Of a stretch of 64,000 bases of DNA, positions 55 to 22,382 are shown one piece after another; the first letter of the stretch is position 1; each line of letters opens with the position of its first letter. The notes beneath the pieces are model-generated. The model did not search any database. It saw only the letters and a program-made list of their open reading frames with translations, and was not told the DNA's origin. The translations under genes were made by a program, and so were the position numbers. Location of the stretch: assembly GCA_022539475.1 (NCBI GenBank), contig VCMS01000024.1, forward strand, positions 1-64,000, written 5' to 3'. This stretch comes from Gracilaria domingensis. Taxonomy: Eukaryota > Rhodophyta > Florideophyceae > Gracilariales > Gracilariaceae.

Positions 55-927
55 ATGAATCAACTCGCCGAAACTCTTCTGGTTGAGCCTGACACAGCGC
101 CCTCTACAGACTATCATAATGAAACCCCAGAGTCGGAAAGCCTCTTGGCCAAGATCCAGACGTCCCTCATCAGCAATGCGGACTTGGCACGATCTGCCGC
201 ACCGGCTCCGTATGGTAATGACGATAATTCTACGGATGAGGGTTTTTAATTGGGGATCGCAATGGCCGCTCTTTCCCCATCAAAGGCCCACAAAACCACC
301 CGACGCTCATCGCTCCCAGTTTTCATCGAACTACTCAACCTGTTACGCGCCAAAATGGGCGTTGCGCAAACGCAGAAGCTCCCACGCAACCCCACAATCT
401 CCATTTGCGCGACGTATTGTGAAAGAGGTACTGAACTTCAGTGCTAAAAGTCCCACAGGAAAACAGTACCCTCAAGCGTCTTTGAAGGAGCATGCGTCGA
501 TCCAGGTGCGCACAAATCCGTTTGCGACTTGGCACAAGCACGAGCTTATTGCACGTCAGCGGGATTGAAGCTGAAACTATCTCCTTCTCCTTATGCTTTC
601 AAGTTTGGGGACGGATACAGAAACAGCCTTGGAAACATGCCCGCCCGCATACCCACCCCAGACGGCACCTTCATCTCAATCAACATTGACGTTGTGTCCG
701 CGGACATTCCTTTTCTGATTGGACTAGAAGTTTTGGATCGTTTTGGACTTTACCCAAACAACGTTACAAACCAGCTCGTTCATCATCGTGCAGGATGGTG
801 CTACCACTTAAACGCAAGCACAGACACCTCTTCTTGGAATGGAGCTTACCGTCAATCCTCTACACTCGATCCGAACTACAGAAGCTACACGAACACTTTT
901 TCCATCCTAGCGCCGGAAAGCTCCTAA
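55..927 (+). pseudogene. Copia gag C-terminus / aspartic protease region, broken
   Basis: One frame carries this stretch but is interrupted by TAA at 247-249 and at 445-447. Around 494-510 it encodes C-V-D-P-G-A, where retroviral-type aspartic proteases have D-S/T-G-A, and around 700-760 it encodes the hydrophobic IGLEVLDRFGL segment expected near a protease C-terminus. The frame closes at 925-927, while the integrase frame is open from about 795 one base behind it, so protease and integrase overlap in a -1 relationship. The internal stops make this copy non-functional for gag-protease. Whether the -1 offset is a programmed site or a one-base deletion cannot be told from one copy. Confidence 0.7.
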
Positions 928-3467: not shown

Positions 3468-3808
3468 TGTCGACGTCTTGAAAAATGCCGACTGTTGATC
3501 CTACAAGTCCGTGACTACTTGCGTCGACATTACATCTTCTTTGTCGATACTCTTCGAACACTATGGTATCGATATTAGTCCATCGCACTGTGCGGATAAC
3601 TTGCGTAGCTACTTAGCAGTCCAGGCTAGGCTCGTTGTCGCCTTCTAGCCCGGATAGGAATCTAGTCGCAACAGTAAAGCATACTGCAAGAGCAAGCAGA
3701 CCTGTGTCGTTGCTCGCGTTTTCCTCCGCTCAGAGTCCTCGTGGACAGACAGGATAGCCAGCGCTCCCTGTCCGAGCACAACAACATCTGTGTTGTTTGT
3801 CGACAACA
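3468..3808 (+). repeat. Candidate 3' LTR of the copia element
   Basis: The segment starts TGTCGACG right after the pol stop and ends TGTCGACAACA where the gypsy reading frame resumes. An 11-bp perfect inverted repeat, TAATGTCGACG at 3465-3475 and CGTCGACATTA at 3522-3532, lies at its left edge. The partner 5' LTR is outside the window, so the length of 341 bp rests on the TG...CA ends and the gypsy junction only. No convincing polypurine tract is visible just upstream. Confidence 0.6.
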
Positions 3809-5543
3809 TGACGTCCTGGACGTGTGTTAGGTGGTCATCAAGGTTATCGGAGAACACTATGATATCGTCAAGATACACCAAGCAGGTCTTCCACTTCAAT
3901 CGAGCCAAGAGGATATCGATAGCACGTTGAAACGTAGCCGGTGCGTTGGTTAATCCGAACGGCATTCGTTTAAACCGGTACAAACCTTGGTGGCACACAA
4001 AAGCAGTTTTGTCCTTATCCTTTTCACGGATCGGAACTTGCCAGTATCCCCAATTGGCATCCAAGGCGGTGAACACTGTAGCAATCCCAAGCGAGTCAAT
4101 GTATTCGTCCATCCTGGGTATGGGATAAACGTCTTTGACGGTGACCGAATTTAGACGACGGTAATCAATACAGAATCGCCATGATCCGTCCGCTTTTGGA
4201 ACTAGCACCACGGGTGAGGCCCAAGCGGATTGAGCTGCCTCTATGACGCCAGCGCGTAACATCTTCTCAACCTGAGATTGCTCTTCTTCCCTAGCTTTGG
4301 GACCAGCCCGGTATGGGTGTTGGGAAATGGGGCTAGTACCTGGAAGTAGGTCAATACGGTGTTCCGTGATTCCAATTGTCCCAAGGGATCCATCCCACAT
4401 GGGTGTGAACTCCCTCAACATTTCTCTTAGCTTACCTCTATGAGATTCAGGTACATGATCAAAATTCAACTGTTCCAGTTCCTTGACAGGGTCTGTATCT
4501 TCCGTTCCTGGTGGCAACGCTTTACCCTCGGTGGGTGCCAGCGATTTGGTAACTTCGCTCGCCGGGGTAACCGATGCGGTAAAAGCGGTTTCCGCTGATC
4601 CCTCCCACTCCTTAGCATCGGTTATACCGAGAACATCCGCAACGGGTATCTTCGTCGGTACGATGGCAGCAGGGTGTGGGAGAGTGGTACAAAGGATTTG
4701 GTTTTTAGCTAACCACTGTCGGGTTGTGCCAAAGTTGGCGACCAAAACTCTGAATGGTTTGTCGGGTTCCACCGAGATTACTCCGTTCGCCAAAGCGAGT
4801 TGCTTTTGATCATACAATGATGGCAATGGTTGTACCACACGTAGACCAGACTGCTTAGTAGTTATGGTGACCCAAACTTGGGATTGCGCAGGGATTGCGA
4901 TGGCATGAGCCACATGGAGCTTAGATGATACCGGGTCGACGGTTGGAACTTCCTGTGCAGCAGGAAGCGGGACGCGCTTGCGTGTAGCTCTCTTTAGCGG
5001 TTTCCTTACAATCGGTATTTCGGAACCATCATCCATGGTAACAACTCGAGCTCGAGGTCGAATCGCTTCAACAAAACGATCACAAAAGTCACAACCGAGT
5101 ATCACCGGTGCGGCAATGCTTTTGCAAACCATGAAATCCACTTTAACCATACAGGTTCCTAATCGTACCATGAGAGGTATGTACCCAAGAGTACGCAACG
5201 GGTTATTGTTGGCATCCGCGATGTCCAAACCTGGACCATGACGAATTTCATCCCGTAGCGCGGGTGGCACCAACTCAAGGTGAATCAGGTTCGGTGCAGC
5301 TCCTGTATCCAACACAGACAACTGTCGAACCATGAACTGGTTAGACAAGCCAAGATCGGCATAAACTTTGTAGTTTCTCTTGGCTATCACAAGAACTCTT
5401 TCCGGAATACGGAGATTACGGGACCGTATCCACGGACGACGTAGAACCGAAAGGTGTTCTGAGCTCACGTCAGTTGTAGCCGCTATCCTTGAAAGGATTC
5501 TAACAGCTGGGGAGCGAAGCTGTGACGCCTCGGGCGCCTTCAA
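3645..5543 (-). pseudogene. Gypsy pol fragment: protease and reverse transcriptase, truncated
   Basis: The open frame begins upstream of 5543 in the -1 frame overlapping the end of gag; position 5543 is a TTG, not a true start. It shows a retropepsin motif (SVLDTGAAPN, about residue 77) and a Ty3/gypsy reverse transcriptase with WASPVVLVPKADGSWRFC, DANWGYWQ, MPFGLTNAPATFQ and CLVYLDDII (about residue 556). After DDHLTHVQDV the match to the family ends. Codons below 3809 are antisense to the copia LTR and do not belong to pol, so the RNase H and integrase domains are lost from this frame. The protein cannot be functional as it stands. Confidence 0.85.
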
Positions 5544-5587
5544 CTTCGGCTCGGAAGGCGCCCCTCCCGTAGGGGAAACTCCTGAAG

Positions 5588-7456
5588 TCAGTTTTTCTGA
5601 ACGGGGCTCACCGAATTCGGTGCGTGAACTCCGTTCGGGGGGCCTAACTGAACCCCATGCGTGGGTACTTCGCCTTGAACCTGGTTCGAAGGTGCCTGTG
5701 CCGGAACGGAGGGCTGAGCATAGACCGGAACCGGTAATCCCAGTTCAGCTCTGGCCTTATCATATTCCTTTCGTGGAACAGATTCCTTTTCCTCGGGCGT
5801 GAGGGCGTCGTAATACGCAATAATTTTTGGCCTGTGCGACGGCGGAAATACGCACTGCGTCGATACGTGACCTGGAAGGTAGCACTGGTAACATATGACC
5901 GAGGCCGGTTTGTCGCGAGGGCGATTGTCCACTCGACGTTGTGGTGCTGTGTCCTTCCACCCTGGACGGTTCAGACGCGACGAATTGTTAGCGTAACGCA
6001 GCGAGGCTGCAGGCACCCGGACACCTTGGGCATACAATGCGGTGTCTTCTTCCGTGCTCGGAATCGAGGTTGACGGCAGGTCCGTAGATCCGTAAGAATC
6101 GGGGTTACTTCCGATGAAGTGGACGTTATCAGCATCACCGACAGCGGTTTCACGTCGCAAAACCGACATCGATGGTGACGAACTCTCCGCGAGTAGCGCT
6201 TTCGAGCGGCGCTGCCCCGGGTTGCGGGCTCGATACGTCTCTCCTTCCGCCTGGGCGTAATTAACCAACTCTAGGTACGTCATTCGGCGTTTTTCCTCGC
6301 GTCGGCGAGCGACCAACGACCGAATGGTGGGGTCCAAACCATCAACAAACATGGTACACCGCTCCTGTGCGGAATACACATTACCACATCGGTGAAACGC
6401 TTTGTTCAACCGCGTTGAATAAACCGTTTCAGATTCTCCACTCTTCTGTCTAGTGTCGCGAACAGCAAGAGTAGCGCTGTAAATCGCGTTGGAAGTCGCG
6501 TACGACCTGAGAAGGTAGTTCACGGCTTCCGGCCAACACGTGACTCCTCCTTCCGAGGCTCTCGAGGTTCCTCGAACTGAGTTGTACTGATCTTCCGCAG
6601 TCCCTGTTAGGAAGTACGGCAGTGCCACATATGCCTGTGCTTCACTCATACCGAGTATATCGGCCTCCTGGACGAACCTTGCAAGGAAATCCAAGATAAG
6701 GATAGGATCTGTCCCCGAGAGCTTCCTTGTTTCAAGGGTAACATTCAACCTTCGAATGTAGTCCTTCACCTTACCGGTTCCTCGCGAGGAGCGATTCGAA
6801 GTAACATCTTCCAACCGATAATAGCGGTACGACAACAGCTTTGTGTAGAGCGGGTCCGTCGGCTTTAACTCTTTGAGTCCCAAGTGGCGCCGTCCTTTCA
6901 CGCGTGATCTCATCACTGCCTGAGTAGACTGCGTCGCTTTCGACCGTGTCGAACGTGACCTATGACGGTTGTCATCACTATCAGATGAATCTGACGAACT
7001 GTCTTCAGTCATGCCGCTCGAGTCAGAGCGCGATGAATCCGAATCATAGTGAACTCGTTTTGAGTGTGGACGTTTCTGCTTCACCGAACGATGGTCTTCA
7101 TCCGCAGATGGATTTCCTTGAGGAACCTGTGCGTTCACAGCTTCATCCATACGGATTGTATCCTCCAGCGTTTCCAAGCGCGAACGAATTCGACCGATAT
7201 CGGTGCGCATTTCCTCGACAAATGCCCGGTACTCCGTGACGAAGACGTCTGGGGTACCCAGATTTTCCATAATGGAATTCACGTCCCTTCTCAGAAGACG
7301 TAAGTCTCCTGAGACATCCCTCACCTGGGCATTATCAACCTGCGTCCTCAACGAGGTAACATCCTGTAGGAGTTCCACGTGAGCAGCGTGATTAATATCC
7401 AAGCGGGATTCCAACCTAGCCAACTCGGCTACGGTAGCAGCGTTAGGGTTAACCAT
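5588..7456 (-). CDS. Gypsy gag polyprotein with CCHC zinc knuckle
   Basis: The reading frame is open from well above 7492 (a TTG) and its first ATG is at 7456, which I chose as start. The protein has a Ser/Asp-rich acidic stretch, a retrotransposon-gag region (about residues 210-330; LSGTDPILILDFLARF, ALPYFLTGTAEDQY) and one zinc knuckle C-x2-C-x4-H-x4-C about 520 residues in, followed by a proline-rich tail. It would coat the element's RNA in virus-like particles. It ends at TGA 5590-5588, immediately after the sequence AAAAAC, and the pol frame overlaps in -1. The gag frame is intact, unlike the copia gag in this window. Confidence 0.85.
   Translation of the reverse strand: MVNPNAATVAELARLESRLDINHAAHVELLQDVTSLRTQVDNAQVRDVSGDLRLLRRDVNSIMENLGTPDVFVTEYRAFVEEMRTDIGRIRSRLETLEDTIRMDEAVNAQVPQGNPSADEDHRSVKQKRPHSKRVHYDSDSSRSDSSGMTEDSSSDSSDSDDNRHRSRSTRSKATQSTQAVMRSRVKGRRHLGLKELKPTDPLYTKLLSYRYYRLEDVTSNRSSRGTGKVKDYIRRLNVTLETRKLSGTDPILILDFLARFVQEADILGMSEAQAYVALPYFLTGTAEDQYNSVRGTSRASEGGVTCWPEAVNYLLRSYATSNAIYSATLAVRDTRQKSGESETVYSTRLNKAFHRCGNVYSAQERCTMFVDGLDPTIRSLVARRREEKRRMTYLELVNYAQAEGETYRARNPGQRRSKALLAESSSPSMSVLRRETAVGDADNVHFIGSNPDSYGSTDLPSTSIPSTEEDTALYAQGVRVPAASLRYANNSSRLNRPGWKDTAPQRRVDNRPRDKPASVICYQCYLPGHVSTQCVFPPSHRPKIIAYYDALTPEEKESVPRKEYDKARAELGLPVPVYAQPSVPAQAPSNQVQGEVPTHGVQLGPPNGVHAPNSVSPVQKN
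5591..5597 (-). promoter_or_regulatory. Candidate -1 ribosomal frameshift site at the gag/pol junction
   Basis: On the minus strand the last gag codons read CAG AAA AAC TGA. The pol frame is the -1 frame here and is open on both sides of this point. GAAAAAC resembles the slippery heptamer A-AAA-AAC but has G at the first position, so only the A-site tRNA would re-pair fully. I did not find a clear downstream pseudoknot by eye. Confidence 0.4.
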
Positions 7457-8851: not shown

Positions 8852-11800
8852 TCACGCAAATTGCGTTGCTCTACATATTGGGACAACGTCCTCCCCCTCC
8901 AGGGGTTCGACCGCAAGCCCCAACGATTCAAGGACAATGAAGGCAGCAAACTGATAGGACCGAATGGGTGTCCTCGCCTTGCCCGCCGCCTTCTGTACTC
9001 CAGCTCCCTTGCCACTACGAACCGACAAAGCCACAGCCTTTCCAAGCAAAGCGGCACTCTTCTTTGTGGCCGCAATGCGACGCTTTTTCTCCAAAGCACC
9101 TTCACGCGCTCTCTTCCTTTGCGCAGCTTGAACTCTGCGCTTAACCCTCTCAGCATCGCGACGAATTTGCTCGGCAATCCTCTTCGTTCTTTTTTCAGCA
9201 GCTTGTCGCTCCACAATCTCTTTCTCTTTTGCGCGTTGCTCCGCTTGTTCCACCCTACGCTTTTCTTTCTCTTCCACTTCAATTCGCGTCGCTTCTGTCT
9301 CTCTCTTTCTGCGCGCCAGCTCCTCTCCGTGTGTAACCCATTCTGCTGGCTGTCCAGCATCATAGAGCGTTCGTGGCTGCTCCTTGGATACCTTAACAGC
9401 GTTAGGCCCACTTCCCGGTTTGGATATGAGCGTTATCAGGATCGAATTTACCGTCTCTGTTTCCTATAGAACCGTGAAAAACTTCTGTATCTTCATCGAA
9501 AATCCATCCCCCGGGGCTTTCATAAGGTCTTCAAGCTTATAAAACGTCTCCTTGTCAGACTGTCGAGCACGGACCGCTCCAACGGCTGAGCTACCTTCGG
9601 CAGCGTTCAGCTTAGCTTCTTCCTTTTTTAAAATGGCTCTGTTTTCGTCTTTGAAAGTCTTGAACTGGTCAGGGAAGCTTCTCTTGAACGGAAAGGTACC
9701 GGTCTTCAAGAATCCACTTTTAACGTCTGCATCCGTTATCGTCTCCCATGCGTACACAGCACAAGCTAGGTTAAAATTGACAATATTCGTGTCGACACGA
9801 CCCTGTCGACAGAACTCGTCCCTAATGAGCCTCATGCTGCTTTGGAATCTGCGATTAATATGTTGATCGCATGGTTGTAGGAAGTGCGACGTGTTCGCTG
9901 CATTAATTACCGCCTCCACAAGATGCGCATAACAGTACTCGACCCATTCGATATCTTTTCGAGACGAGTCGCCGTCCAAGAATAACAAATAGAAGGTGTT
10001 GTCTGGAATAAACCGGACGGCTGTGTTTTGAATATGCTTAGCCAAGCAGGGCATAAGTGATCCTTCCATTGAGCCATTCTCGCTAACTTTGATCACTCCA
10101 TCCGGGGGAAACCAATTCGGATTGGTAAATCGCGCGATTATTCCAGAAGGAGACTCGGAAAAGGTTCCTTGAACTGGAGCGTACCAGTCGGAAGATTTTC
10201 TTTTTCCCGCCACAATGAAAAATGGAGGTGCAACACGACCAGCCGCAGACGCCGCAATCACGGCAGTAATATGTTTGGATACGCCATAGCTGGACTTGAC
10301 TGCACGAAGACCTCCATTTCTTGAATTCGTAGCTGAGAAAACCTTACAACGTTTTCCATTCATATTGTTAACCTGAGTTTCATCGACATTCCAAATCCGA
10401 TTTGGTGATGAAAGCAAGCCAGCACGCAGCTTTCCAATGCGTTCTAGAACGGAGAAAAAAGTGTCAACGTGTTCATACGATTGCGCGGCTAGCTTTGCGT
10501 TCTCTCGGTTTGTAGAGCAAAACCCTGCGCTAGGCGCGATGGGGAATCTCCACTAGGATGTCCGAGTCCTACTCCCTGGATGGGATAGAAACAGCGGCAG
10601 ATCCCTCTGTCCGTGCTCGAGTCGCGAGACAAGCCGGGTGTAAGACCGGAGACGGTGACTGGATATACCTACAGAGGTGAGATGCAAAGAACGGTGTAGA
10701 TCCAGAGGTGAAGTGTGATCCGAACCTGGAGAGATGGAGAAAAAGGGGACCGTGTCAACGGGGGGGGAGCTCACGGTGCAACCCACTGGAGCGAAGCTAC
10801 GGACCGTGCCAACCGGCGGAAACAGGTCCGATAGCGGAGCGACGCACAAAGGCGTGCCGAAAATATACCCAATACTGGGGCGGAAGCAATACCTGAACCA
10901 GGTGAACGGGTGACAACAACAGTCACGAAAGTGAACAACAAAATACAATGACAACAACAAGGGACCGATACAACGGTAGATATAACAAAGATTCCAGAGA
11001 TGGCAAGATGCAAGCTTCCTAAGTGACCCTGAGGGGTAGTAGTGCCGAAACCAATCGTGGTTACTCTCCGAGGGGAGTGGTAAACCTACGTAGGCAGCTG
11101 TCTACTATAGCCCGATCCTGAACAGGACGCGACTCAGTTGTCCATTTACTCGTCGGCTCCAGGGTGAGATCACCCGAGCATATATACTACTACTACTACG
11201 GTATCTACAATGCACACCTCCCGAGGGTCATACACGTGGACGACCCACTGTCAGGGTGCGGGGTATTCCCCAACGGGCGTGGCACAAATATCTAACTAGC
11301 CAGCTCCACCACGTGGCCTACTATCACACCCACTAGGCACTTCCCACGCAGGGTCTACCTATTAAGGGTCCAACCAAACCATCCCAACGATACCCAAAAT
11401 TAAAGGGAGTTTTCATAACTTAGCCACGTCACCGGCCATCGGTACCATCTCATTATGAGAACCGTGATGCATCCGATAGCGGAAAGCCGTTGCTCCACAC
11501 GGTTCTCAATGTTTTTAAACGACACTTCGCGATTGCGTGCTCTGTACTTTCGAATGAAATCGTCACTTGGAACTCCGTTCTTAAATCCTGCTCTATCGTC
11601 TGCCGCGATGCGGGATAAAACATGCTTGAATGTGAATTTGTCTACCGCAAAACCCCTCTCTGCCGCAGTTATCATTCTCGTATTGATCATTTGACATTCC
11701 TCTTTAGTAATAGTAAAAGAGGGGCCAGGCCGTATCTCGGGACTCAATAAATGCTCCAGTTCTTGTTTGCTGCTTGATGCAGCTTTTTTAATCCTATGAA

Positions 11801-11987
11801 CAGTTGACTTGCTGATGCCGGTCAATGTAGCAGTATCGCGAACGTTTCGGTTATCTCGCAGCAGTCGTAAAGCTTCTGTACGCGCGAGGGACTGGTCTCT
11901 CTGACGTTCCAAGCGCTTCTTGTGCTCAGATGTCTGTTTTCGCATGGACGGGGGCATGATGAAAACGTTACGGCTGTTCAATGCCAT
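8852..11987 (-). pseudogene. pogo/CENP-B-like DDE transposase, split by an LTR and a TAG stop
   Basis: From the ATG at 11987 the N-terminus has a Psq-type helix-turn-helix (RDTATLTGISKSTVHRIKK) and then a CENP-B/Tc5-type DNA-binding domain (ending VPSDDFIRKYRARNREVSF). The frame is broken by the LTR between 11504 and 10506. It resumes as ENAKLAAQSYEHVDTFF and runs into the DDE_1 catalytic domain with NVDETQ, FLDGDSS and HFLQPCDQ supplying the three acidic residues. A TAG at 9466-9464 interrupts the frame. Beyond it the same frame stays open to 8852 and encodes a long Lys/Glu/Arg-rich probable coiled coil (EEKEKRRVEQAEQRAKEKE), a typical C-terminal tail for this group. Both lesions make it inactive. 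Confidence 0.85.
10511..11499 (-). repeat. Solo LTR (989 bp) with 5-bp target duplication CGGTT
   Basis: Plus-strand ends are TGTAGAGCAAAACC at 10511 and TTGCTCCACA at 11499, short inverted termini of an LTR. CGGTT precedes it (10506-10510) and follows it (11500-11504). Removing the LTR and one CGGTT joins the transposase as ...SFKNIENR-ENAKLAAQ..., which restores a continuous conserved domain. Orientation (minus) is inferred from similarity to the gypsy LTR at 7902-8735. No internal retroviral genes remain, so it is a product of LTR-LTR recombination. Confidence 0.9.
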
Positions 11988-12250
11988 GGTGAACAAGTTG
12001 TCAGAGGAGCTCGCAGGAGCTGTTCATTTGAAAGTTTATTGCAGTCCTGTGCATGACGGGAAAGGAGCTCACAATGGACTTACGACTCCCCTGTGGCGCC
12101 AGATGGGATGGGAGATGGGCGTTTCGGTTCCCATACGTTTGGCGGGAATTTGTCCCAAAATTAGCCATGTCCCAAAACTATCCTCCCAGAAGGGTACGTA
12201 GAAAGATAGCGCTGTTGCTCAGCGAAATGCGTGGCTCGCACCCCTCGATA

Positions 12251-13244
12251 GCCCCATGCCCCTTGCGAGACCGATTTTGATCACGCTGCCCAGCAAGATT
12301 TTGCGAGAATTAGAGAGAATCTCGCTGGCCAGCGAGATGTTCTCAGTGTAGCAGCGAGAACTTCTCGCTACTCGCCGCCCTGCGCCGTCCCTCACCGCTC
12401 GCTTCTTTGCTGTTCCGCCGCTGTTCCGCCGCTATAGCGCCTGCTTCGCCGCCATCTGCCTCGTTTTCATCCGCTGTGCTACCGTCGGCTTCGCCGCTGC
12501 TTTGCCTTCCGCCTTGCCGCATTACGTCTCTACGCCCGTCCTGTGACCGCAATCCAACTCACCGCTTTCTGCCCCCCGCCCTTTGCTACGCCACTTTGTG
12601 CCTCGCTGCACTCTGTGTCGCTGCCCTCCGCCTCGGCGCCCTCCGCCCCGGCGCCCTCCGCCTCTTCGTTTTCCGCCTCACCGCCTTCCGTGTGGCTTTC
12701 TCACCATCGCCGCCCTGCGCATCACGGCCCTGCGCTTCTCCGCCGTACGTGTCGCTGCTCTCCGCATCGCCATCCTTCCGCTTCCCGCCGTGTGTGTCGC
12801 TGCTCCTTGCCTCGCCGCCCTCCGCGTCGCTCTCTCCATGTCGCTACCGTTCTTCTTACTGCCATTCTTCTCGCCGCCTTTCGTCTCTTCGCCGTTCGTT
12901 TCGCCACTCCACGTTTCGTCGCCCTTCCCATCATCGCCCCTCACATCCCCGCCCTCCGCCTTGCCACAGTCAGTGTCTCTGCTCTCCGCCCCACCGCTCT
13001 CTGCCTCGCTGCTCTCCGCCTCAGCGCCCTCCACCTCTCCGCCATCAGTGTCGCCGCCCCTCGCTTCCCGCCCTTCGTGTCGCTGCTCTCCGTCCCTCCG
13101 CCCTCCGCCCCACCACTGTCTGCCTCGCTGCTCTCTGCCTCTCTGCTCTGCGCCTCGCCGCCCTCCGCCTCTCCGCCGTCAGTGTCGCGGCCCCTCGCTT
13201 TCCGCCCTCCGTATTGCTGCCTCTGTTTCGCTGCCTTTCATTTT
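12251..13244 (+). repeat. Left terminal inverted repeat, pyrimidine-rich minisatellite
   Basis: Near-identical in inverse orientation to 19655-20649. The outer 150 bp are unique-looking and contain repeated GCGAGA/TCTCGC palindromic motifs (CTCGCTGGCCAGCGAGAT). The rest is an irregular tandem array built from units such as CGCCCTCCGCCTC, with interspersed CGCTGC and TCGCCG. Several overlapping frames are open through it on both strands (Ser/Pro/Cys-rich forward, Arg/Lys-rich reverse). They follow from the base composition and are not credible genes. Confidence 0.9.
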
Positions 13245-13417
13245 CGGCTTTCGGCCTTGGAACCCTCCCCCTCCACGTTCTGCGCATTCCAGCTCTTGCT
13301 TATGAAGTTGTTGCTCTCAAGTTTCTGTCCCTCGCCAACCATGCAGGGTTCTAGTTCAACGCAAACATTTTCGTCGGTCTCGAGACCCCGAACTGATTTC
13401 CGGACGTTCATATCTGT

Positions 13418-14002
13418 GTGACGCGGATTACGAGCATGCCGTACGCTTCAACTAAGGCTTCGGCACCGCCAGTTTGCGTCTTTACACCATCGACAACTAA
13501 GAAAAAGAGGCCCAGCACACAGACGATCTATGCGGCCAATAGCGCTCAAGGGGGAAACTGTGATGCGAATGTGATTGATTTCGGTCCACAGCCTTTGAAA
13601 AACGATGCTTGTAATACAATAGATGCGCACAGTACTGGATCGGAGTCCTTTAACTCTGGAATGAGGTCACAACCCCATCGCATGGTAGCAGAAGAAATTC
13701 AGGAAGAGGAGCAGAATGATAAAGAGGAACAGCCACCCAAATCTTTTCATGTTCTCCATGATCCAAATGATAATGAATATCCATCTACGGACTCGTGGTC
13801 TTCTTTTCAAGGGGATGATTATATCTCCTCTTCAAAAGAGAGTGCCAGTGATAACACATCTTTGTCAGCATCTGAGTTACAAATACAGTACACAGAAGTA
13901 CAAATGCTGCATAACAAAGTGGAGCATAAAACGCCGTTGAATCATTCCGATATGATACCTAATATCGTGGATGCAGGCAAGAACGCGACAGAGGACTTTT
14001 AG
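13418..14002 (+). pseudogene. N-terminal acidic region of the long-TIR element's transposase
   Basis: A 194-codon segment, low in hydrophobic residues and rich in Ser, Glu, Asp and Gln (EEIQEEEQNDKEEQPP), as expected for the disordered N-terminus of piggyBac-type transposases. It ends at a TAG at 14000-14002, but the same frame continues without another stop into the conserved transposase core starting near 14024. It is therefore best read as the N-terminus of one protein with an in-frame nonsense codon rather than a separate gene. A start at 13437 (ATG, MPYASTK) is also possible. No domain can be named in it. Confidence 0.6.
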
Positions 14003-14023
14003 TCCACTCTCTTTGTAGACTCT

Positions 14024-15433
14024 GTGGAATTTCTGGACGACATCACAGACGAACTGGAGAACGACATTTTTGGTAATGAGAGGACCACGAGCGTAACTGA
14101 CACCGAAGAAAGAAGTGTAAACAACAGGGTTGGGGGTCTTCCTGGATGGAAGTATGCAGGGGCTTTCGAGGACATACGAATCGACGTGGACAATGCAGAA
14201 CGAGTTCTCGGCCGTCGGTTTTTGGTTGAAGCAAACCATATGTTAGACAGCGTCATGAATGATATTGAGGTTAACACTACAAGCATTTCTCAAACAAATA
14301 TCGGACATATGACCAGAATGCAAGCATTGGATGTGTTTCTTCCCAGCTCTGTGCTAGAGAAACTTAAAGAATTCGTCAATCGAGTTTTATCGAAGCGCAA
14401 GATATCGCTCACCAACACTTTGGAGATCAAGGGGGTCATAATTACGCATGTACTTGCTGCGTCTTATGGGACATCCGTATCGATCATGACGTCAGCGGAA
14501 CATCGAGAATTTTACTTTCAAACTGGAGTTTCGGGGGAGCGATACAATGCAGTGTGGTCGGCGTTAAGTGGCACTCTGAAACGGAGTGAGCGGGTGCAAG
14601 ACTGTGGTCTCGGATGGTCTAATAGGCCAATTGCCGGGAACCAGCTGATAACGGAATTGGAGCAGCAACTCGCAGCAGTGAAACGAAGGTTCTTATACGT
14701 TCCAGGACAGACAATATTTTCCTTGGATGACGATCATCAGCGGCTAAGGTCACGGGCAGTAACTCAGTTGACTAATCTTTCGCACGTCAACAACCCTCAG
14801 AAGGCCTTAGGTCCTGTTAGTAATGCGCTGTGCTCGGCTTTGACTTCCGCCTTTCTAGCTTGGCACTACTCCAGACCACACGAGAAAATCATTCACGTAT
14901 GGCAGCGTCTTGTTCAACTGGTTCAAGGAGCAGCGACCCCTGGCTGCGTTGTTCCAATGACTGATGCCATATTTGCAGCTGACAGAGGCTACAATGGAAA
15001 AGAGACTATAGATTTTATAAACGACCGACTAGGGGCCACTGGTATAGGGACCCATAAACGGAGCTTGGATTATCCTTTTGTTTTTGGTGACGGACCTCTC
15101 CGGAAGAAACACAAGGGCATGATCATAAAGGAGAAAGGTTGCCGTGCGGTGTACAGCGCAGTGCGACCGCCAACAGAGAAGGGTGGAAGGGAATTTCAAG
15201 CCATTGTATATCGAGAGAGCTATTCTGGGAGAATTGCCTCTGTATACCACAACAAGATGAGCATGTTCGGCGCAAGTAATTTTACGCTGATCCCGAAGAC
15301 GGAATTTGGGTCAAGGTCTCTTACTGCAGAGGAATTCAAGACCTGCGGGAAGGGTACAGCCGATTTTGCAAGAACAAGACAGGATTTGCAGAGAACGGCG
15401 AAGAGGGGTGTAATCCAGATCAGAATGATATAG
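14024..15433 (+). pseudogene. piggyBac-like (DDE_Tnp_1_7) transposase core, first half
   Basis: This frame encodes about 470 residues. The first codon given here is GTG, and the frame is continuous with the preceding segment apart from one TAG. It shows SLDDDHQR at about residues 232-239 (first catalytic Asp region) and AADRGYNGKET at about 317-327 (second), followed by GATGIGTHKRS and YPFVFGDGP, comparable to the second-Asp region and following TGT/GT motif of piggyBac transposases. The third catalytic Asp is not here; it is in the segment at 16566-17237. The last roughly 20 residues before the stop look out of frame. The next frame (one base back) is open from well before 15433 and reads on into the nuclease domain, so a one-base deletion near 15370-15390 is likely. 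Confidence 0.7.
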
Positions 15434-15447
15434 CACAGACCTCATTA

Positions 15448-16545
15448 TTGCATCTTTCTCTTGCCACAAGGCAGTTTCACGAGTACACAATCTTACAATC
15501 CGGAGATCCCGGATGGTTTCTCGCCAGAGCATTTAGGTTCACATCTCGAACAACGCACTTGTTTTTCAGGGCTATGGCCTCTGATTTCGAGAAGCACGTG
15601 CGAGGCGGAGCCCTACTCCTTCGCGGTAAAACTGTCATGAAAGGGGCACAATCTCTTCCGACTCAGGAGAGTGAGACGAGAGCATTGCTCAGTGACAAAA
15701 TGGCGGCAGTAATAGACGGTTTAGGAATGACTCAGCGAAATTCGGCGACTGATGGCGAGGTGACAGAAGCCGTCGGTCACATAATGACGGCCACGCAAGA
15801 ATCGCTGTCGGCCCTGCTGAAGACGGCGTTGGTGAAAATGCTGACAAGAGTGGGCCATCGACCGCCCGCATCACTTAACAAACCGCAGTTGGTTGATAAA
15901 ATACTCAAACTTCAGAATGACGTGGTCAATGGTTCAATAACACTCACAGCTTCACTAAATGACTCAGAAACAAACGAAAGCTTACGACGAAGTATTCAAA
16001 AGTGTCTTTACAAGGCCTCTTTGGAGGCTTGGTTTATGAAGCCGCTGACAGTGACGGCGGGAATGCGGGAGGGATCAATAAACGAAAAGAGTGTCTTGCG
16101 CTCACTTCCTAAATTCTTCTCTGAACATGACGTTTTGGACGGAAATGCGTTCCAGATTCAAGCGACATTTAGACCGCAGTACGCGAAACGATATACTATC
16201 AATAGAATATGGACTACTGGACTAATTGGGTCAAAGAGTGTTGAACTCTTGGCAGGCAGCCCGGATGGTATTTCGGCAATATCTGATGAGAATAACGTGA
16301 TCACAGTGGCGGCGATTGAAATTAAAACAATGACCTGGTTACGAACGTCGAAGGAGGCGGAGCGCATTCGTCATCGATACAGCAGGGTGGTGAAAATACC
16401 GGACATTGGACACTCGGAGTACTCAACAAAACTCTTTCATCAGTTGGTACCATGTACTGAGTACAGACTGCAGTGCGTCCACCATGCGGCCGTGGTTGAA
16501 AGGCCTTACTTTTTGTTGTTTCAAAGGGAAGCAGCCTTGGAGTAG
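15448..16545 (+). pseudogene. YqaJ/lambda-exonuclease-like nuclease domain inside the transposase
   Basis: The frame opens upstream of 15448 and encodes QSGDPGWFLARAFRFTSRTT near its start, which matches the W-x2-R...-T-S start of YqaJ-type nucleases. Further on come AGSPDGISAI (about residues 270-279) and AAIEIKTM (about 289-296), the D...E-x-K metal-binding signature of that fold, and then FHQLVPCTEYRLQCVHHAAV, a counterpart of the YqaJ Q-x-Q helix. It is followed, again one base back, by the transposase third-Asp segment. The domain may trim or process DNA ends during transposition. That role is inference; only the motif set is seen. The flanking frame offsets mean this copy is dead or needs frameshifting. 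Confidence 0.65.
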
Positions 16546-16565
16546 CAAACATCATTTATGTTGCA

Positions 16566-17294
16566 ATGCTACAATTTCATAGACCATTTCTTGCAAAGTA
16601 TACGTACAGCATTTCGTGCATGAGAACGATGGCGTTTGAATGGATAGGCTCTTCGGCCATACATATACCCAAACAATATGACGAACCCCTGCAAAGTTCT
16701 CACGCCAAAGATATATATTCTTTTGGTTCGTTTTACAATTTGAGCGCAGCTTACAAGAAGTTATGCGATGAAAAGGGATCCCTACCTCCGGCACGCATGA
16801 TAAGACCCACATGTCTTGTGTTCTGGAACTTACTGAAGGGGGGAGTTGATGAATTTAGTAGAAGCATGCAGAACCTTTGCTACACGAATTCATCCGAGAA
16901 TCAGATTGTCAGCGTTTTTGGAAGACTGCTGTGTGCACAAGTAAATAATGCCGGCATTGTTTACACACTTTACCTTGCAAGAAGACATGGAAATCTTCCC
17001 GATAGAATTAATCCACAAGAAGGATCTGCAACAAGTTATCGACAACTGCGACATGATGTGACAAAACACATGACTTTTTGTTCGTTCGCTAAACATTTAG
17101 CGAAAGAGTTTGCGGAAATCTATAGAAGAATCAAATGTGCTGAGAGTTCTTGTGGAAGAAAATCGTCGAACGTCTCAGAGAAGGAGGTTGTGAAGCAAAT
17201 GTATGTGAAGAACGTTATTGAAAAATATAACCAAACCTGTAGAGCAAAACGCCCTGAACAGGGATGCACTGAGGTGCTTGTCATAGTTTGTTGA
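16566..17294 (+). pseudogene. piggyBac-like transposase, third-aspartate segment
   Basis: The frame is open upstream of the ATG at 16566, and the conserved reading joins the nuclease frame near 16525 (FLLFQ... then SLGVANIIYVAM). It carries LLKGGVDEFSR at about residues 89-99, equivalent to the K-G-G-V-D motif that supplies the third catalytic Asp in piggyBac transposases, followed by a helical region with VNNAGIVY. Genuine coding ends at 17237, where a solo LTR begins. The last 19 codons (17238-17294) are LTR sequence. Excising the LTR continues the frame as KYNQTNDTKRSLS into the cysteine-rich domain at 18100. Confidence 0.75.
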
Positions 17295-18094
17295 TCCGTT
17301 ACCGGCTTCGCCACCTCATTTATGAGAAGGCATCGTGGCAATTGCCCATTTTCGGATATGCCTAGGAAGGGTAGCGTTTCTGCACACGTGTGCTGAGTTG
17401 GCCCGATAGTGGGTGCGCCGTGGCAAGCCTGCCACGGTTGCACACCTGTAGTGTGTTGGCCGGCAGCGCCGGATAGTTAAATATTTTAATTGATATTTTC
17501 AAGTGCCGTATATAAGTGGCGGCACTTGCCGCCACTGCACGGGAAGTAAACCTCAAGGAGGCCTTTGGCTCTGATCTTCTTGCCGCTTGCGCACGGTCAC
17601 AAGCCCCATCCTGGGGAACACCGCCGCAATTCCGGGCTGATCAACCAACCTCCATCTCTGAGGAGTACTAATCCGTCGTCACGGCACCTTTACTATCTAT
17701 TCTATTGTTTTTACTTCCGTCTTACGGCTCTTCGATACTCTGCCCTGTCATACAGGTTTGGCTCATTAGTCTCGGGACTTATTCCCGTTATCTCGAGTCA
17801 GTGCCCCGCAGTGCGGCTCGCTGGCTAATCTTTTGTCGTCCCATACCGTTGGGCTGGGTACCCCCACTCGCTGTGGCTCGCCGGAACCATCCGGATACCT
17901 ACGCCGATTCTACCCCCTTTACCTCCGACTGCACGCCCAGATCGGGGTCACCCGGATTTACACCCGGCTCGTGTTGGCCCTATCGGAGGGTTCTGTCACT
18001 GCGCCTACCCCTGTAGGGAACAGGGTTCGAACACCCCTGTCGGTGCTCTTCCGCGACGCGGCTGTTTTTTTCCCGCCACCGGGTTTGCACCACA
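17238..18094 (+). repeat. Solo LTR, 857 bp, inside the transposase gene
   Basis: Ends are TGTAGAGCAAAACG (17238) and TTTGCACCACA (18094). The 5 bp before it are AAACC and the 5 bp after it AAACT, a target duplication with one mismatch. Excision restores the transposase frame exactly. The copy at 18605-19463 is the same family in inverse orientation. A TATATAA followed by a perfect hairpin lies at 17509-17536, which suggests plus orientation. Confidence 0.88.
17509..17536 (+). promoter_or_regulatory. LTR TATA box fused to a perfect hairpin
   Basis: TATATAA (17509-17515) is followed without a gap by AGTGGCGGCA-CT-TGCCGCCACT (17515-17536), a perfect 10-bp stem with a 2-base loop. The same arrangement, inverted, is conserved in the second solo LTR (hairpin 19162-19183, TATA 19183-19189). 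It sits where an LTR promoter would be expected. Function is inferred from the TATA box and from conservation between the two copies. Confidence 0.55.
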
Positions 18095-18405
18095 AAACTA
18101 ATGACACAAAAAGAAGTTTGTCAGCTCTGGAATCACATCATATGCTAAAAGACAAGCCTGGATATTGTTCTTTGTGTTCATATTATCATAGTGTTAAATT
18201 GGGAGGACGGGCTTTTAAGAAGCGAGGTGGCTCAAAGACGAGACAGTGGTGTAGGTTGTGTCGCCAACCATTATGCTCAGCTTGCTGGAATACATGGCAT
18301 CGGAGGAGAAAGCTTAAGAAGGCTGCAATATCTGCAGTAGCACTGGAAGATCTTATTAAGAAGGCTAAGAACGAATTGGAAGAACTAAACCAAAGTAACG
18401 TGTAG
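18095..18405 (+). pseudogene. Cysteine-rich C-terminal domain of the piggyBac-like transposase
   Basis: The frame encodes C-x2-C (PGYCSLC), then W-C-x2-C-x4-C-x2-C (QWCRLCRQPLCSAC) and H (WNTWHRR), followed by a basic helix and a stop at 18403-18405. This spacing matches the C-terminal RING-like zinc domain of piggyBac transposases, which binds the transposon ends. It is separated from the rest of the gene only by the solo LTR at 17238-18094. The open frame that continues leftward into the LTR is fortuitous. Confidence 0.75.
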
Positions 18406-18604
18406 ATTTTTTATCGTGACGTATATGAAAATGGACGTAAAACTATGTTTCGCAGGTTTGTAGTCTACTGACCAGCGGCGAGGCAAAGAGAAACGACAGC
18501 AAAGAAGCAGAAACGTGGAGGTAGAGGAAAGCGGGACGACGAAGGTCGGTGCGTCGCAGGGATGCGAGAATGGAGAGAGCCAAAATATGTGTACGTGTAG
18601 GGTG

Positions 18605-19463
18605 TGTGGTGCAAACCTGGTGGCGGGAAGACAACAGCCGCGTCGCGGAAGAGCACCGACAGGGGTGTTCGAACCCTGCTCCCTACAGGGGTAGGCGCAG
18701 CGACAGAACCCTCCGATAGGGCCAACACGAGCCGGGTGTAAATCCGGGTGGCCCCGATCTGGGCGTGCAGTCGGAGGTAGAGGAGGTAAAATCGACGTAG
18801 GTATCCGGATGGTTCCGGCAAGCCGCAGCGAGTGGGGGTATCCAGCCCAACGGTATGGGGCGACAAAAGATTAGCAAACGAGCCGCACTGCGGAGCACTG
18901 ACTCGCGATAAGCGGGAAAACTCCCGAGACAAATGGGACAAACCTACAATGTAGGGCAGAGTGGCGAAAGCCGTAAGACGGAAATGAAAACGATAAAATA
19001 GATAAGACAAGTGCCGTGACGACGGATTAGTACTCCTAAGGGACGGAGGTTGGTTGAGCAGCCCAAAAATGCGGCGGTGTTCCCCAGGATGGGGCTTGTG
19101 ACCGTGCGCAAGCAGCAAGAAGATCAGAGCCAAAGGCCTCGTTGAGGTTTACTTCCCCTACAGTGGCGGCAAGTGCCGCCACTTATATACGGCACTTGAA
19201 AATATCAATTAAAATATCTAACTATCCGGCACTGCCGGCCAATACAATACAGGTGTGCTCCCGTGGCAGGTTTGCCACGGGGCACCCGCTATCGGGCCAA
19301 CTTGGCACATGTGTGCAGAAATACTACCCTTCCTAGGCATACCCCAAAATAGGGCCACTATCACAGTAGCCTCTCATAACCTGAGGTGTCGAAGCCGGTA
19401 ACGGATCAACAAACTATGAAAAGCACATCGGTGCATCCCCACAAAAGGGCGTTTTGCTCTACA
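18605..19463 (-). repeat. Solo LTR, 859 bp, with perfect target duplication GGGTG
   Basis: Plus-strand ends are TGTGGTGCAAACC (18605) and GTTTTGCTCTACA (19463). GGGTG flanks it on both sides (18600-18604 and 19464-19468). It is the inverse of the LTR at 17238-18094 over its whole length with scattered substitutions. The different target duplications show two independent insertions rather than the ends of one inverted element. It lies between the transposase stop and the right TIR. Confidence 0.9.
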
Positions 19464-19654
19464 GGGTGGCATGAGCCCAGAGGTAAACGGAGGCGAAAGC
19501 AACGACGCGAACAGTGATGCGAGCGGCCACGATGAGCAGCAAAAGTCGTGATGCAAGAAAGCACGAAAGTCGGAAGGCAAACCACAGCGAGAGATTCGAG
19601 GTGAAAAGCGGCGAGAGTGGGGAGGGAAACAGCAGCGAAAGCTGCGAGAGGGGC

Positions 19655-20649
19655 AAAATGAAAGGCAGCGAAACAGAGGCAGCGATACGGAGGGCGGAAA
19701 GCGAGGGGCCGCGACACTGACGGCGGAGAGGCGAAGGGCGGCGAGGCGCAGAGCAGAGAGGCAGATAGCAGCGACGCAGACAGTGGTGGGGCGGAGGGCG
19801 GAGGGACGGAGAGCAGCGACACGAAGGGCGGGAAGCGAGGGGCGGCGACACTGATAGCGGAGAGGTGGAGGGCGCTGAGGCGGAGAGCAGCGAGGCAGAG
19901 AGCGGTGGGGCGGAGAGCAGAGACACGGACTGTGGCAAGGCGGAGGGCGGGGATGTGAGGGGCGATGATGGGAAGGGCGACGAAACGTGGAGTGGCGAAA
20001 CGAACGGCGAAGAGACGAAAGGCGGCGAGAAGAACGGCAGTAAGAAGAACGGTAGCGACATGGAGAGAGAGACGCGTAGGGCGGCGAGGCAAGGAGCAGC
20101 GACACACACGGCGGGAAGCGAAAGGATGGCGATGCGAAGAGCAGCGACACGTACGGCGGAGAAGCGCAGGGCCGTGATGCGCAGGGCGGCGATGGTGAGA
20201 AAGCCACACGGAAGGCGGTGAGGCGGAAAACGAAGAGGCGGAGGGCGCCGGGGCGGAGGGCGCCAAGGCGGAGGGCAGCGACACAGAGTGCAGCGAGGCA
20301 CAAAGTGGCGTAGCAAAAGGCGGACGGGCAGAAAGCGGTGATTTGGATTGCGGTCACAGGACGGGCGTAGAGACGTAATGCGGCAAGGCGAAAGGCAAAG
20401 AAGCGGCAAAGCAGACGGTAGCACAGCGGATGAAAACGAGGCAGATGGCGGCGAAGCAGGCGCTATAGCGGCGGAACAGCGGCGGAACAGCAAAGAAGCG
20501 AGCGGTGAGGGACGGCGCAGGGCGGCGAGTAGCGAGAAGTTCTCGCTGCTACACTGAGAACATCTCGCTGGCCAGCGAGATTCTCTCTAATTCTCGCAAA
20601 ATCGTGCTGGCCAGCGTGATCAAAATCGGTCTCGCAAGGGGCATGGGGG
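19655..20649 (-). repeat. Right terminal inverted repeat of the long-TIR element
   Basis: Inverse copy of 12251-13244, of the same length within a base or two and with only scattered differences. The match ends where AAAATGAAAGGCAGCG (19655) meets element-specific sequence. As on the left, long open frames on the minus strand repeat those of the left TIR because the DNA is repeated, not because a protein is conserved. Confidence 0.9.
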
Positions 20650-22382
20650 TAACTTACAAGGCCGTAATGCTTTCGTTAGAGAGAACGGTTCTCCAGCTTA
20701 CAGCGGCAGCGGTAAACCGCCGTCGGCTTGCTCCTACCGGAGCCACCGGTCTTTTTTGACCCGAGCTCAGCTCGAAATAATATTATTAGTGAGGTATAAA
20801 ATCAGAGACATATCGAGTCGATATTATCGACCCTGTCGCCCCGCCAGGGTTTTATTAAATCTACACTACACGTAAAGTGCTGTACGCTCCAAGCGCAGGG
20901 GCTCTCGAGTCTCCTCTACTCGTGACCTTACTCGTGACCCGAAAGTTTCTTCAGAAGTTTTACATAAAACAAGAGCTATCCAGAGGTGCAGGGGTGTTGG
21001 TGGTGCCCCTTGAGCGACAATCGATGCTCCGCTCACTGCCTCAGCCGTCTCGCGCCTGGTGTGGCGTTCAAAACGGCTCAGCGCGAACCAAAGGTGCCTT
21101 TGGTAAGTAGTACATTAACATACACATCGTCACCATCAGTGGGAACTATTGTGATGAAGACTTTTAGCAGACATCACCTAAAACGCTCTTTGAGCGCGGC
21201 AGTTGTGGTTGGAGCTTCAGTCCGAGATTGGTGCAAATAAGTGGAATCAGACCCTTACGGTATTCTTCTTCTCCGTAGATATGGGTACGAGAGGCACTGT
21301 TATCGATGGAAAACTAGAACAATCAGGCAAGGTATCGCCATTGCCACGCAATGTGCATTGTGTGAGCATCGGAACAATCACTTACTGTGTGGCCCAGTTG
21401 CAGCAAAACCCATACAGAACGAATAGCATCCGGTCCGATTTAAAGCTTTCTTTTCTTTCGTCTGTTCAGGGGCCAACGTTCAACTTCCAACTCCTCGGTC
21501 GTCCAAGAGTGGAAACAATGTACTAGGAAAGATGGTCAGAAGACCTTGTGGACCCCATTAAATGCAAGATATAATTCACGCTTGTAGCCGTCTCCAAAAG
21601 TTTCGTTCTCCTGTTTGCATGGTACATCTCGGGCATACTAAAAGTATGAAGTTACGACACAACCACTGTTCACGTGCAGGCATTAACGGTCATAAAAGAA
21701 TGATCTTGATGTGCACTAGTTTTTGGCTTTCCTCCAGAGAGATAAAGGGATGTAATACGAATATTCTGTGAGCTTCAGAATCGAAAGTTCACATGCACTC
21801 TGGCGCAGAAAAGGCAGCAAACAATAAAGCATAACCTTACTGAACCTCCATGACCAAACTCACCATGACTGAGTAGATATCTACATCAATATATCGTTAA
21901 ATAATGGCATTGTTACCTCCTTCACGAAGGTCAGGCGACGATAAATCACAGTGGGCATCGACAGTTCCTTTTAAATCTTGTCGGCTAGATGCCCCGTGAC
22001 TCCATTCTGCACGGCTTACTGAATGGTTGCTATCACAGAAATTTTCACGATGAAAGAAACGATAGTTGCGAAGCACAGTAAGAATCGAACAATACTCGTA
22101 GATATCTCACCTCACAGGCCCTGTCCCGATACTATCCAGCTGGATCTCAAGACACCTGACATAAATCTCTGTATTACCGGTGCCCAAATGCAATATTCCT
22201 TACTGTCGTTCTTTTCTGCAAGAGATTTGAGGATATATCTACTGCTCTGGGCCTTCGTACCCAGATGGGATAGGTCTTGACACCTGCATCGTTTCAGCCT
22301 ATCATCCGTGTAGACTACCTCGTCAGTCCTTGACTCTCCTCTCACTTCATGTTTTATCATTGCTCTTCTACAATAAGACAAT
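20650..22382. other. Intergenic, no recognisable gene
   Basis: Holds only short open frames. The longest (21203-21526, 107 codons) has no recognisable motif. Near 20690-20755 there are short self-complementary stretches (GCGGTAAACCGC; ACCGGAGCCACCGGT) followed by a T-run, possibly a decayed element end or small RNA terminator. The last 300 bp would include the sulfotransferase promoter. Confidence 0.5.

What the first reader, a model, noticed from the sequence alone, without database searches (positions are those of the whole stretch)
13418..18405. A piggyBac-type transposase with a YqaJ-like nuclease spliced between its second and third catalytic aspartates
Seen: successive frames encode SLDDDHQR and AADRGYNG (D1, D2 regions), then a W-x2-R/SPDG/E-I-K nuclease set, then KGGVDEF (D3), then a C-terminal cysteine-rich zinc domain. 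The pieces are joined by one in-frame TAG and two one-base offsets, with almost no spare sequence, so the ancestor was probably one roughly 1,400-residue protein. Known: piggyBac transposases carry insertions between D2 and D3, and some other eukaryotic DDE elements (ISL2EU/IS4EU) encode a YqaJ protein separately. Inference: here the nuclease forms the insertion domain and could process ends or flanking DNA during excision. I cannot tell whether this family has been described.
Basis: partly seen in the sequence, partly recalled or inferred. Interest (0 to 1): 0.85.

Follow-up and report, generated by a model that had tools for sequence, protein, structure and literature searches.

The report
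Jumping gene with built-in DNA-chewing enzyme
A red-algal DNA transposon makes one large protein in which an exonuclease-type DNA-cutting domain is nested inside the enzyme that moves the element; both sets of catalytic residues are conserved, so this looks like a working two-nuclease transposase, although the copy in this window is dead.

The parts
12252..20648 (+). whole element (8,397 bp, including two nested solo LTRs), termini CCCCATGCCC...
   Evidence: 31-bp tip found without mismatch at both ends of the window and C311 copies and one end of C385
12248..12251 (.). 4-bp site flanking the left end (ATAG)
   Evidence: does not match the right copy
20649..20652 (.). 4-bp site flanking the right end (GTAA)
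   Evidence: the related unfilled site at C56 (L067) does not settle the original 4-mer
12252..13244 (+). left terminal inverted repeat (~1 kb, GC-rich degenerate 15-bp minisatellite inside)
   Evidence: 96-98% complementary to 19655-20651
19655..20648 (-). right terminal inverted repeat
13436..14002 (+). N-terminal low-conservation segment of the transposase ORF; ends in in-frame TAG
   Evidence: mean pairwise identity 20.8% over P0018 1-245
14003..15333 (+). DNA-binding/dimerisation region, RNase H-like half with D1 (14720-14743) and D2 (14975-14998), beta-rich segment after D2
15334..16508 (+). YqaJ/lambda-exonuclease-like nuclease with SAP-like helical insert: W-x3-R 15496-15552, NE 16063-16086, SPDG 16258-16269, E-I-K 16312-16329, Q 16462-16485; frame offsets at both ends in this copy
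16509..17237 (+). last strands of the nuclease, then D3 (KGGVDEF 16836-16856) and following helical region
17238..18094 (+). nested solo LTR (857 bp) of a high-copy retrotransposon
   Evidence: absent from the C311 copy
18095..18405 (+). C-terminal cysteine-rich (zinc) domain and stop
18605..19463 (-). second nested solo LTR, opposite orientation
   Evidence: absent from the C311 copy

Best explanation
The locus is a dead copy of an autonomous DNA transposon family of red algae whose single protein (about 1,200-1,390 residues) is a piggyBac-fold DDD transposase carrying, between D2 and D3, a complete lambda-exonuclease/YqaJ-type nuclease (itself split by a SAP-like insert), followed by the C-terminal cysteine-rich domain. 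Shown: one ORF, both sets of catalytic residues conserved, mobility, 4-bp NTAN target duplication. Inferred mechanism: the DDD site excises the element with 4-nt staggered cuts and inserts it at a TA-centred 4-bp site; the donor ends left behind carry 5' phosphates, and the nested nuclease, placed beside the flanking DNA, digests the 5' strands there. That would remove the cohesive overhangs and favour homology-templated repair, which would restore the donor copy.
Against: No experiment and no excision footprint was seen, so the nuclease role is untested. Lambda exonuclease works as a trimeric ring (entry title of 1avq: toroidal), not shown here. The relation to piggyBac by sequence is weak: PF13843 reaches its cut-off in 0 of 14 proteins (best 19.5 of 22.4); hhalign to host piggyBacs gives probability 4.7% and E 0.0086 for the D1 half (score 29.7, best of 20 permutations 27.5) and 40.5% and E 2.9e-4 for the C-terminal part, where only the cysteine-rich domain aligns. 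YqaJ PF09588 passes in 1 of 14. Foldseek on the whole model gave no hit at E <= 0.001. The residue three after D3 is Ser in 14 of 14. The window element's own flanking 4-mers differ (ATAG/GTAA), and its related unfilled site does not settle them.
Confidence: 0.42

Rival explanations
1. TnsA-like division of labour: the same nested transposase, but the PD-(D/E)XK domain makes or finishes a defined cut at the transposon ends (second-strand cut or hairpin opening) instead of resecting the donor.
For: TnsA (endonuclease) and TnsB (DDE) act together in Tn7-like elements and occur as a natural TnsAB fusion, with the TnsA mutant giving cointegrates (passages of PMC8188705). Nuclease residues are 14 of 14 conserved.
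Against: piggyBac-type excision proceeds by attack of the first cut strand's 3' end, through a transposon-end hairpin (passage of PMC6900584), so no second nuclease is obviously needed. The fold matches listed first are exonucleases (TnsA is not among the 50 rows shown, which does not exclude it).
Confidence: 0.27
2. The nuclease acts on other DNA (host or target DNA, or competing elements), or on structures formed after insertion; its place in the transposase only tethers it.
For: YqaJ/lambda-Exo-type nucleases are a separate ORF in ISL2EU and lie downstream of the transposase domain in KolobokE (passages of PMC4482050, PMC9587614), so a place inside the catalytic domain is not needed for whatever they do.
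Against: In both lineages seen here it is nested between D2 and D3, which suggests coupling to the transposase reaction.
Confidence: 0.13
3. The domain is a structural or DNA-binding relic without catalysis.
For: The insertion domains of RAG and Hermes are described as bending and shaping DNA, not as nucleases, in the passages seen of PMC6900584; the SAP-like part is poorly conserved (23.8% mean identity).
Against: All tested nuclease residues are invariant in 14 of 14 proteins, and nuclease identity (41.7%) is close to that of DNA-binding region 1 (42.3%).
Confidence: 0.1
4. The nuclease is a recent passenger (homing-type or intein-like insert) in a piggyBac gene.
For: A nuclease in the middle of another enzyme's catalytic domain is a known passenger pattern (general knowledge).
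Against: No family member without the insert was seen: 14 of 14 full-length proteins have it; 17 of 39 genomic matches run in one piece from D2 past the nuclease E-x-K (the other 22 do not span both points); the distant second lineage has it too.
Confidence: 0.03
5. Two neighbouring genes misread as one, or a chance frame assembly.
For: The window copy is broken into pieces.
Against: Five stop-free copies in the genome and a transcript ORF marked complete.
Confidence: 0.01

Closest known systems
piggyBac superfamily (T. ni piggyBac 6x67, piggyBat 9c0f)
   Different: D2-D3 longer by about 470-500 residues than in five host piggyBacs; duplications NTAN, TTAA only in some; Ser three residues after D3, where 4 of those 5 host piggyBacs have Asp; below the Pfam PF13843 cut-off
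KolobokE
   Same: eukaryotic DDD/E transposon with a PD-(D/E)XK lambda-exonuclease-like nuclease (passages of PMC9587614)
   [quoted passage not shown] here it is nested between D2 and D3 and termini are CCCC
ISL2EU (PHIS group)
   Same: a YqaJ exonuclease domain is encoded by the element (passages of PMC4482050; PMC9179366)
   Different: separate ORF; AT duplication; DDE transposase grouped with PIF/Harbinger
TnsA-TnsB fusion of Tn7-like elements
   Same: one polypeptide with a nuclease and a DDE transposase (passages of PMC8188705)
   Different: bacterial; not known to me to be nested; different transposase family
Teratorn (piggyBac-like transposon fused with a herpesvirus)
   Same: a piggyBac-type element that acquired foreign DNA-processing genes (search listing of PMC10175614)
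   Different: the fusion there is between an element and a viral genome, not a nuclease inside the transposase; only the listing was seen
Chondrus crispus protein P0022, UniRef name 'PiggyBac transposable element-derived protein'
   Same: a full-length member of this family (40% identity to the P0018 segment)
   Different: the database name does not mention the nuclease; no Pfam domains are precomputed for it

Membership tests
piggyBac superfamily | piggyBac-type RNase H-like DDD fold | tested here: met
piggyBac superfamily | C-terminal cysteine-rich domain | tested here: met
   13 of 14 full-length proteins (the L060 ORF loses it); hhalign of the C-part to host piggyBacs E 2.9e-4, probability 40.5%, score 39.2, best of 20 permutations 21.8
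piggyBac superfamily | strict TTAA target site | tested here: not met
   4-bp NTAN: perfect pairs CTAT, TTAT, ATAA, CTAG, TTAA, TTAA in 6 of 9 elements; related unfilled sites hold a single TTAA (C266, C50), CTAT (C311), ATAA (C20)
piggyBac superfamily | 4-bp duplication and termini starting CCC | tested here: met
   CCCC at both ends in 8 of 9 elements, the ninth (C9) has CCCC and CCCT
piggyBac superfamily | Pfam PF13843 above curated cut-off | tested here: not met
   0 of 14 proteins; 5 of 14 give sub-threshold matches 13.8-19.5 of 22.4
piggyBac superfamily | fourth Asp three residues after D3 (recalled as D450 in T. ni piggyBac) | tested here: not met
   Ser in 14 of 14
YqaJ / lambda-exonuclease family | E, D (SPD), E-x-K, Q motifs in order | tested here: met
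   14 of 14 (L060 reads TPD)
YqaJ / lambda-exonuclease family | Pfam PF09588 above cut-off | tested here: inconclusive
   met in P0018 (25.3) and in second-lineage L061 (26.6); not in the other 13 of 14 full-length proteins, nor in L062 (17.4)
YqaJ / lambda-exonuclease family | lambda-Exo fold | tested here: met
YqaJ / lambda-exonuclease family | 5'-3' exonuclease activity | not testable with these tools
   needs biochemistry
ISL2EU | YqaJ as a separate ORF and AT duplication | tested here: not met
   definition from passages of PMC4482050
Kolobok (KolobokE) | termini 5'-RR; [quoted passage not shown]
   termini CCCC; nuclease nested; definition from passages of PMC9587614

The most novel reading that the evidence does not exclude
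A eukaryotic transposase that carries a lambda-exonuclease-type resection enzyme inside its own catalytic domain and uses it to convert a seamless cut-and-paste excision into resected ends repaired from a homologous template, so that the donor copy is kept: a built-in copy-number device, accompanied by relaxation of the TTAA target to NTAN.
Probability: 0.3. Interest if true: 0.88.

Novelty: new variant of a known kind. Interest (0 to 1): 0.66.

Why it matters
DDE transposases tolerate insertions between D2 and D3, but a whole second nuclease there, conserved with its active site, would be a new way to couple DNA cutting with end processing. Lambda-exonuclease-like nucleases recur in unrelated eukaryotic transposons (ISL2EU, KolobokE, and here a piggyBac-related lineage), and the passages I read give no tested role for them; stop-free copies in a genome of only ~78 Mb, with the nuclease nested rather than separate, make that question testable in one protein. 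The relaxed NTAN target also bears on how piggyBac enzymes choose TTAA.

Tried and rejected
Direct Pfam scan of window ORFs and two C311 ORFs: no DDE or YqaJ hit for this protein. Sequence search of PDB with a C311 ORF and with the family profile: nothing related. A 2-bp TA duplication, my first reading, was dropped when intact elements showed matching 4-mers and unfilled sites agreed. Reading TIRs/TSDs of canonical host piggyBacs as a control gave no clean result, so NTAN is not compared with the host's own piggyBacs. A scan of viral contigs with the family alignment found no relative. Palindromic tendency of the flanks (33 matched positions, shuffled mean 24.6, p 0.009, eight elements) is too thin to claim. 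The profile search scored only the 7,993 candidates sharing most words, within a length range, so its lack of canonical piggyBacs is no proof of a gap. Host name: relatives in Agarophyton chilense and Chondrus crispus suggest a red alga, perhaps gracilarioid; two searches for Gracilaria genome papers with these words returned nothing. Literature: piggyBac+YqaJ, YqaJ+transposase (22), piggyBac+red alga+transposon (23), piggyBac+insertion domain (45), YqaJ+transposon+eukaryotic+superfamily (59), piggyBac+TTAA+algae (60) and piggyBac+lambda exonuclease (102) listed no paper on this fusion by title or abstract start. [quoted passage not shown] the other (PMC13289751) only lists both words in a filter; the third was not opened. 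Repbase reports are not held. A published description elsewhere is not excluded.
Full report
Observation. The window copy is broken by a TAG at 14000-14002, by frame offsets near 15334 and 16509, and by a nested solo LTR at 17238-18094 that separates D3 from the cysteine-rich domain; a second solo LTR lies at 18605-19463 in the other orientation. The repeat is high-copy: 38 of the 45 places match only this stretch, one of them being the window's own second LTR (a lower bound, 40 of 658 candidates scored). The C311 copy, 97.8% identical over 3,942 aligned columns, lacks these breaks and has a stop and a frame offset of its own elsewhere. So the ancestor was one ORF.

Element. Ends were found at 12252 and 20648, with ~1 kb inverted repeats. 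The 31-bp tip occurs without mismatch at both ends of the window and C311 copies and one end of C385, and with 1-3 mismatches at five further places, including both ends of a 2.4-kb element on C9.

Family. A search with the D1-D2 half gave 17 proteins, a full-length read-through query 9, and a profile 49; all 49 scored E < 1e-54, and no canonical piggyBac appeared, although only the best 7,993 candidates within a length range were scored. Eight proteins are full length (P0018-P0024, P0027); P0018 is a EukProt transcript ORF marked complete, P0022 is from Chondrus crispus and named 'PiggyBac transposable element-derived protein' in UniRef, and P0011, P0017 and P0048 are from Agarophyton chilense. 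In the host genome P0018 gives 39 matches. The copies at C1, C2, C42, C50 and C266 are stop-free from D1 through the cysteine-rich domain; C20 is stop-free but its ORF loses that domain. Eleven of 39 matches span D1 to D3 in one piece.

Two active sites. In 14 full-length proteins (6 host, 8 other) D1, D2 and D3 are invariant, D1-D2 is exactly 85 residues, and D2-D3 is 614-627. In five canonical piggyBacs of the same genome D2-D3 is 125-150, with positions assigned by me from motifs. The nuclease residues E892, D952, E969, K971, Q1020 and the W697/R701 pair (P0018 numbering) are invariant in 14 of 14. Mean pairwise identity is 60.4% for the RNase H half, 41.7% for the nuclease, 42.3% for DNA-binding region 1, 45.1% around D3, 49.1% for the cysteine-rich domain, 23.8% for the SAP-like part and 20.8% for the N-terminus.

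Second lineage. A Pfam YqaJ search of the host found one locus over cut-off, C117 (L061; 26.6 bits), and none of the main-lineage copies. Its relative on C107 (L062) reads D1 (LDDDLY), D2 (TADRGY), W-x3-R, NE, SPDG, E-I-K, Q, SGVDG, CxxC in one frame broken by two stops; the family HMM matches it at 63.3 bits in two stretches. The gap from W-x3-R to NE is about 66 residues there against about 190 in the main lineage, so the SAP-like insert is absent. Nesting of the nuclease therefore probably predates the split of the two lineages.

Mobility and target. The C266 and C20 elements are 98.0% identical over 5,710 bp, the match ending within 5 bp of the element tips, on different contigs. Nine elements had both ends read: six have perfect 4-bp copies (CTAT, TTAT, ATAA, CTAG, TTAA, TTAA), two differ at one base (C20, C9) and the window element at two; shuffling the right ends gives a mean of 1.3 perfect pairs and p 0.00034 (the 4-mers of C9 were entered by hand). 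Searching the genome with eight joined flank pairs found related unfilled sites for five of them; eight sites were fetched. For C266, 30 places cover the junction; of four fetched, three match 115 of 116 bases with a single TTAA and one has diverged at the 4-mer. The C50 relative (86% identity, flanks partly palindromic) holds a single TTAA; the C311 relative, which matches only 13 bases on the left side, a single CTAT; the C20 relative (88%) a single ATAA, equal to one of its two flanks; the window relative differs next to the junction and does not settle its 4-mer. The duplication is therefore 4 bp, NTAN, not strictly TTAA.

Mechanism. Shown: one protein, two conserved sets of catalytic residues, 4-bp duplication on insertion, movement. 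Inferred: cut-and-paste by the DDD site, and catalytic use of the nested nuclease on DNA ends of the reaction. I favour resection of the donor 5' ends because the fold is nearest to lambda exonuclease, known for 5'-3' digestion (general knowledge), and piggyBac excision proceeds through a transposon-end hairpin (passage of PMC6900584), which should leave 5'-phosphorylated flank ends (inference); a TnsA-like cut is the main rival (PMC8188705 passages).

Known or not. [quoted passage not shown] passages only). The seven searches listed under Tried and rejected found no paper on a piggyBac-type transposase with a nested YqaJ nuclease; Repbase was not available. I class it as a new variant of a known kind: a piggyBac-related lineage, not a strict member, since TTAA, the fourth Asp and the Pfam cut-off were tested and not met.

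Noticed in passing
L061 (C117:131567-132847), L062 (C107:76500-82900), C3:481238-482647: a second, deeply diverged transposon lineage with the same D1-D2-YqaJ-D3-zinc order but without the SAP-like insert; the two copies read (L061, L062) are broken, and the C3 matches hold stops
   Followed up: partly
window 17238-18094 and 18605-19463; 37 further single-stretch places: very abundant ~860-bp solo LTRs, several pairs about 11 kb apart on one contig, suggesting full-length LTR retrotransposons
   Followed up: no
flanks of 8 elements: left and right flanks look weakly palindromic around the target (33 matches, shuffled mean 24.6, p 0.009); the C42 element sits in TGACTCA...TGAGTCA
   Followed up: partly
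L010 (C374), L011 (C385), L012 (C650): three partial copies all break at the same element position (3762-3765), as if another element had inserted there in an older copy
   Followed up: no
window 9464-10552 (-) and 11400-12023 (-): remnants of another DDE transposon (DDE_1; HTH_23) just left of the element
   Followed up: no
window 690-3467 (+) and 3645-5744 (-): retrotransposon ORFs: RVT_2 plus integrase core, and RVT_1
   Followed up: no
window 12600-13177 and 19678-20276: the inverted repeats are filled with a degenerate 15-bp GC-rich minisatellite, where long overlapping ORFs appear in several frames
   Followed up: no
host genome: 130 matches to canonical piggyBac (PF13843), 121 of them over cut-off (some genes give two matches), in a 78-Mb genome
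   Followed up: partly
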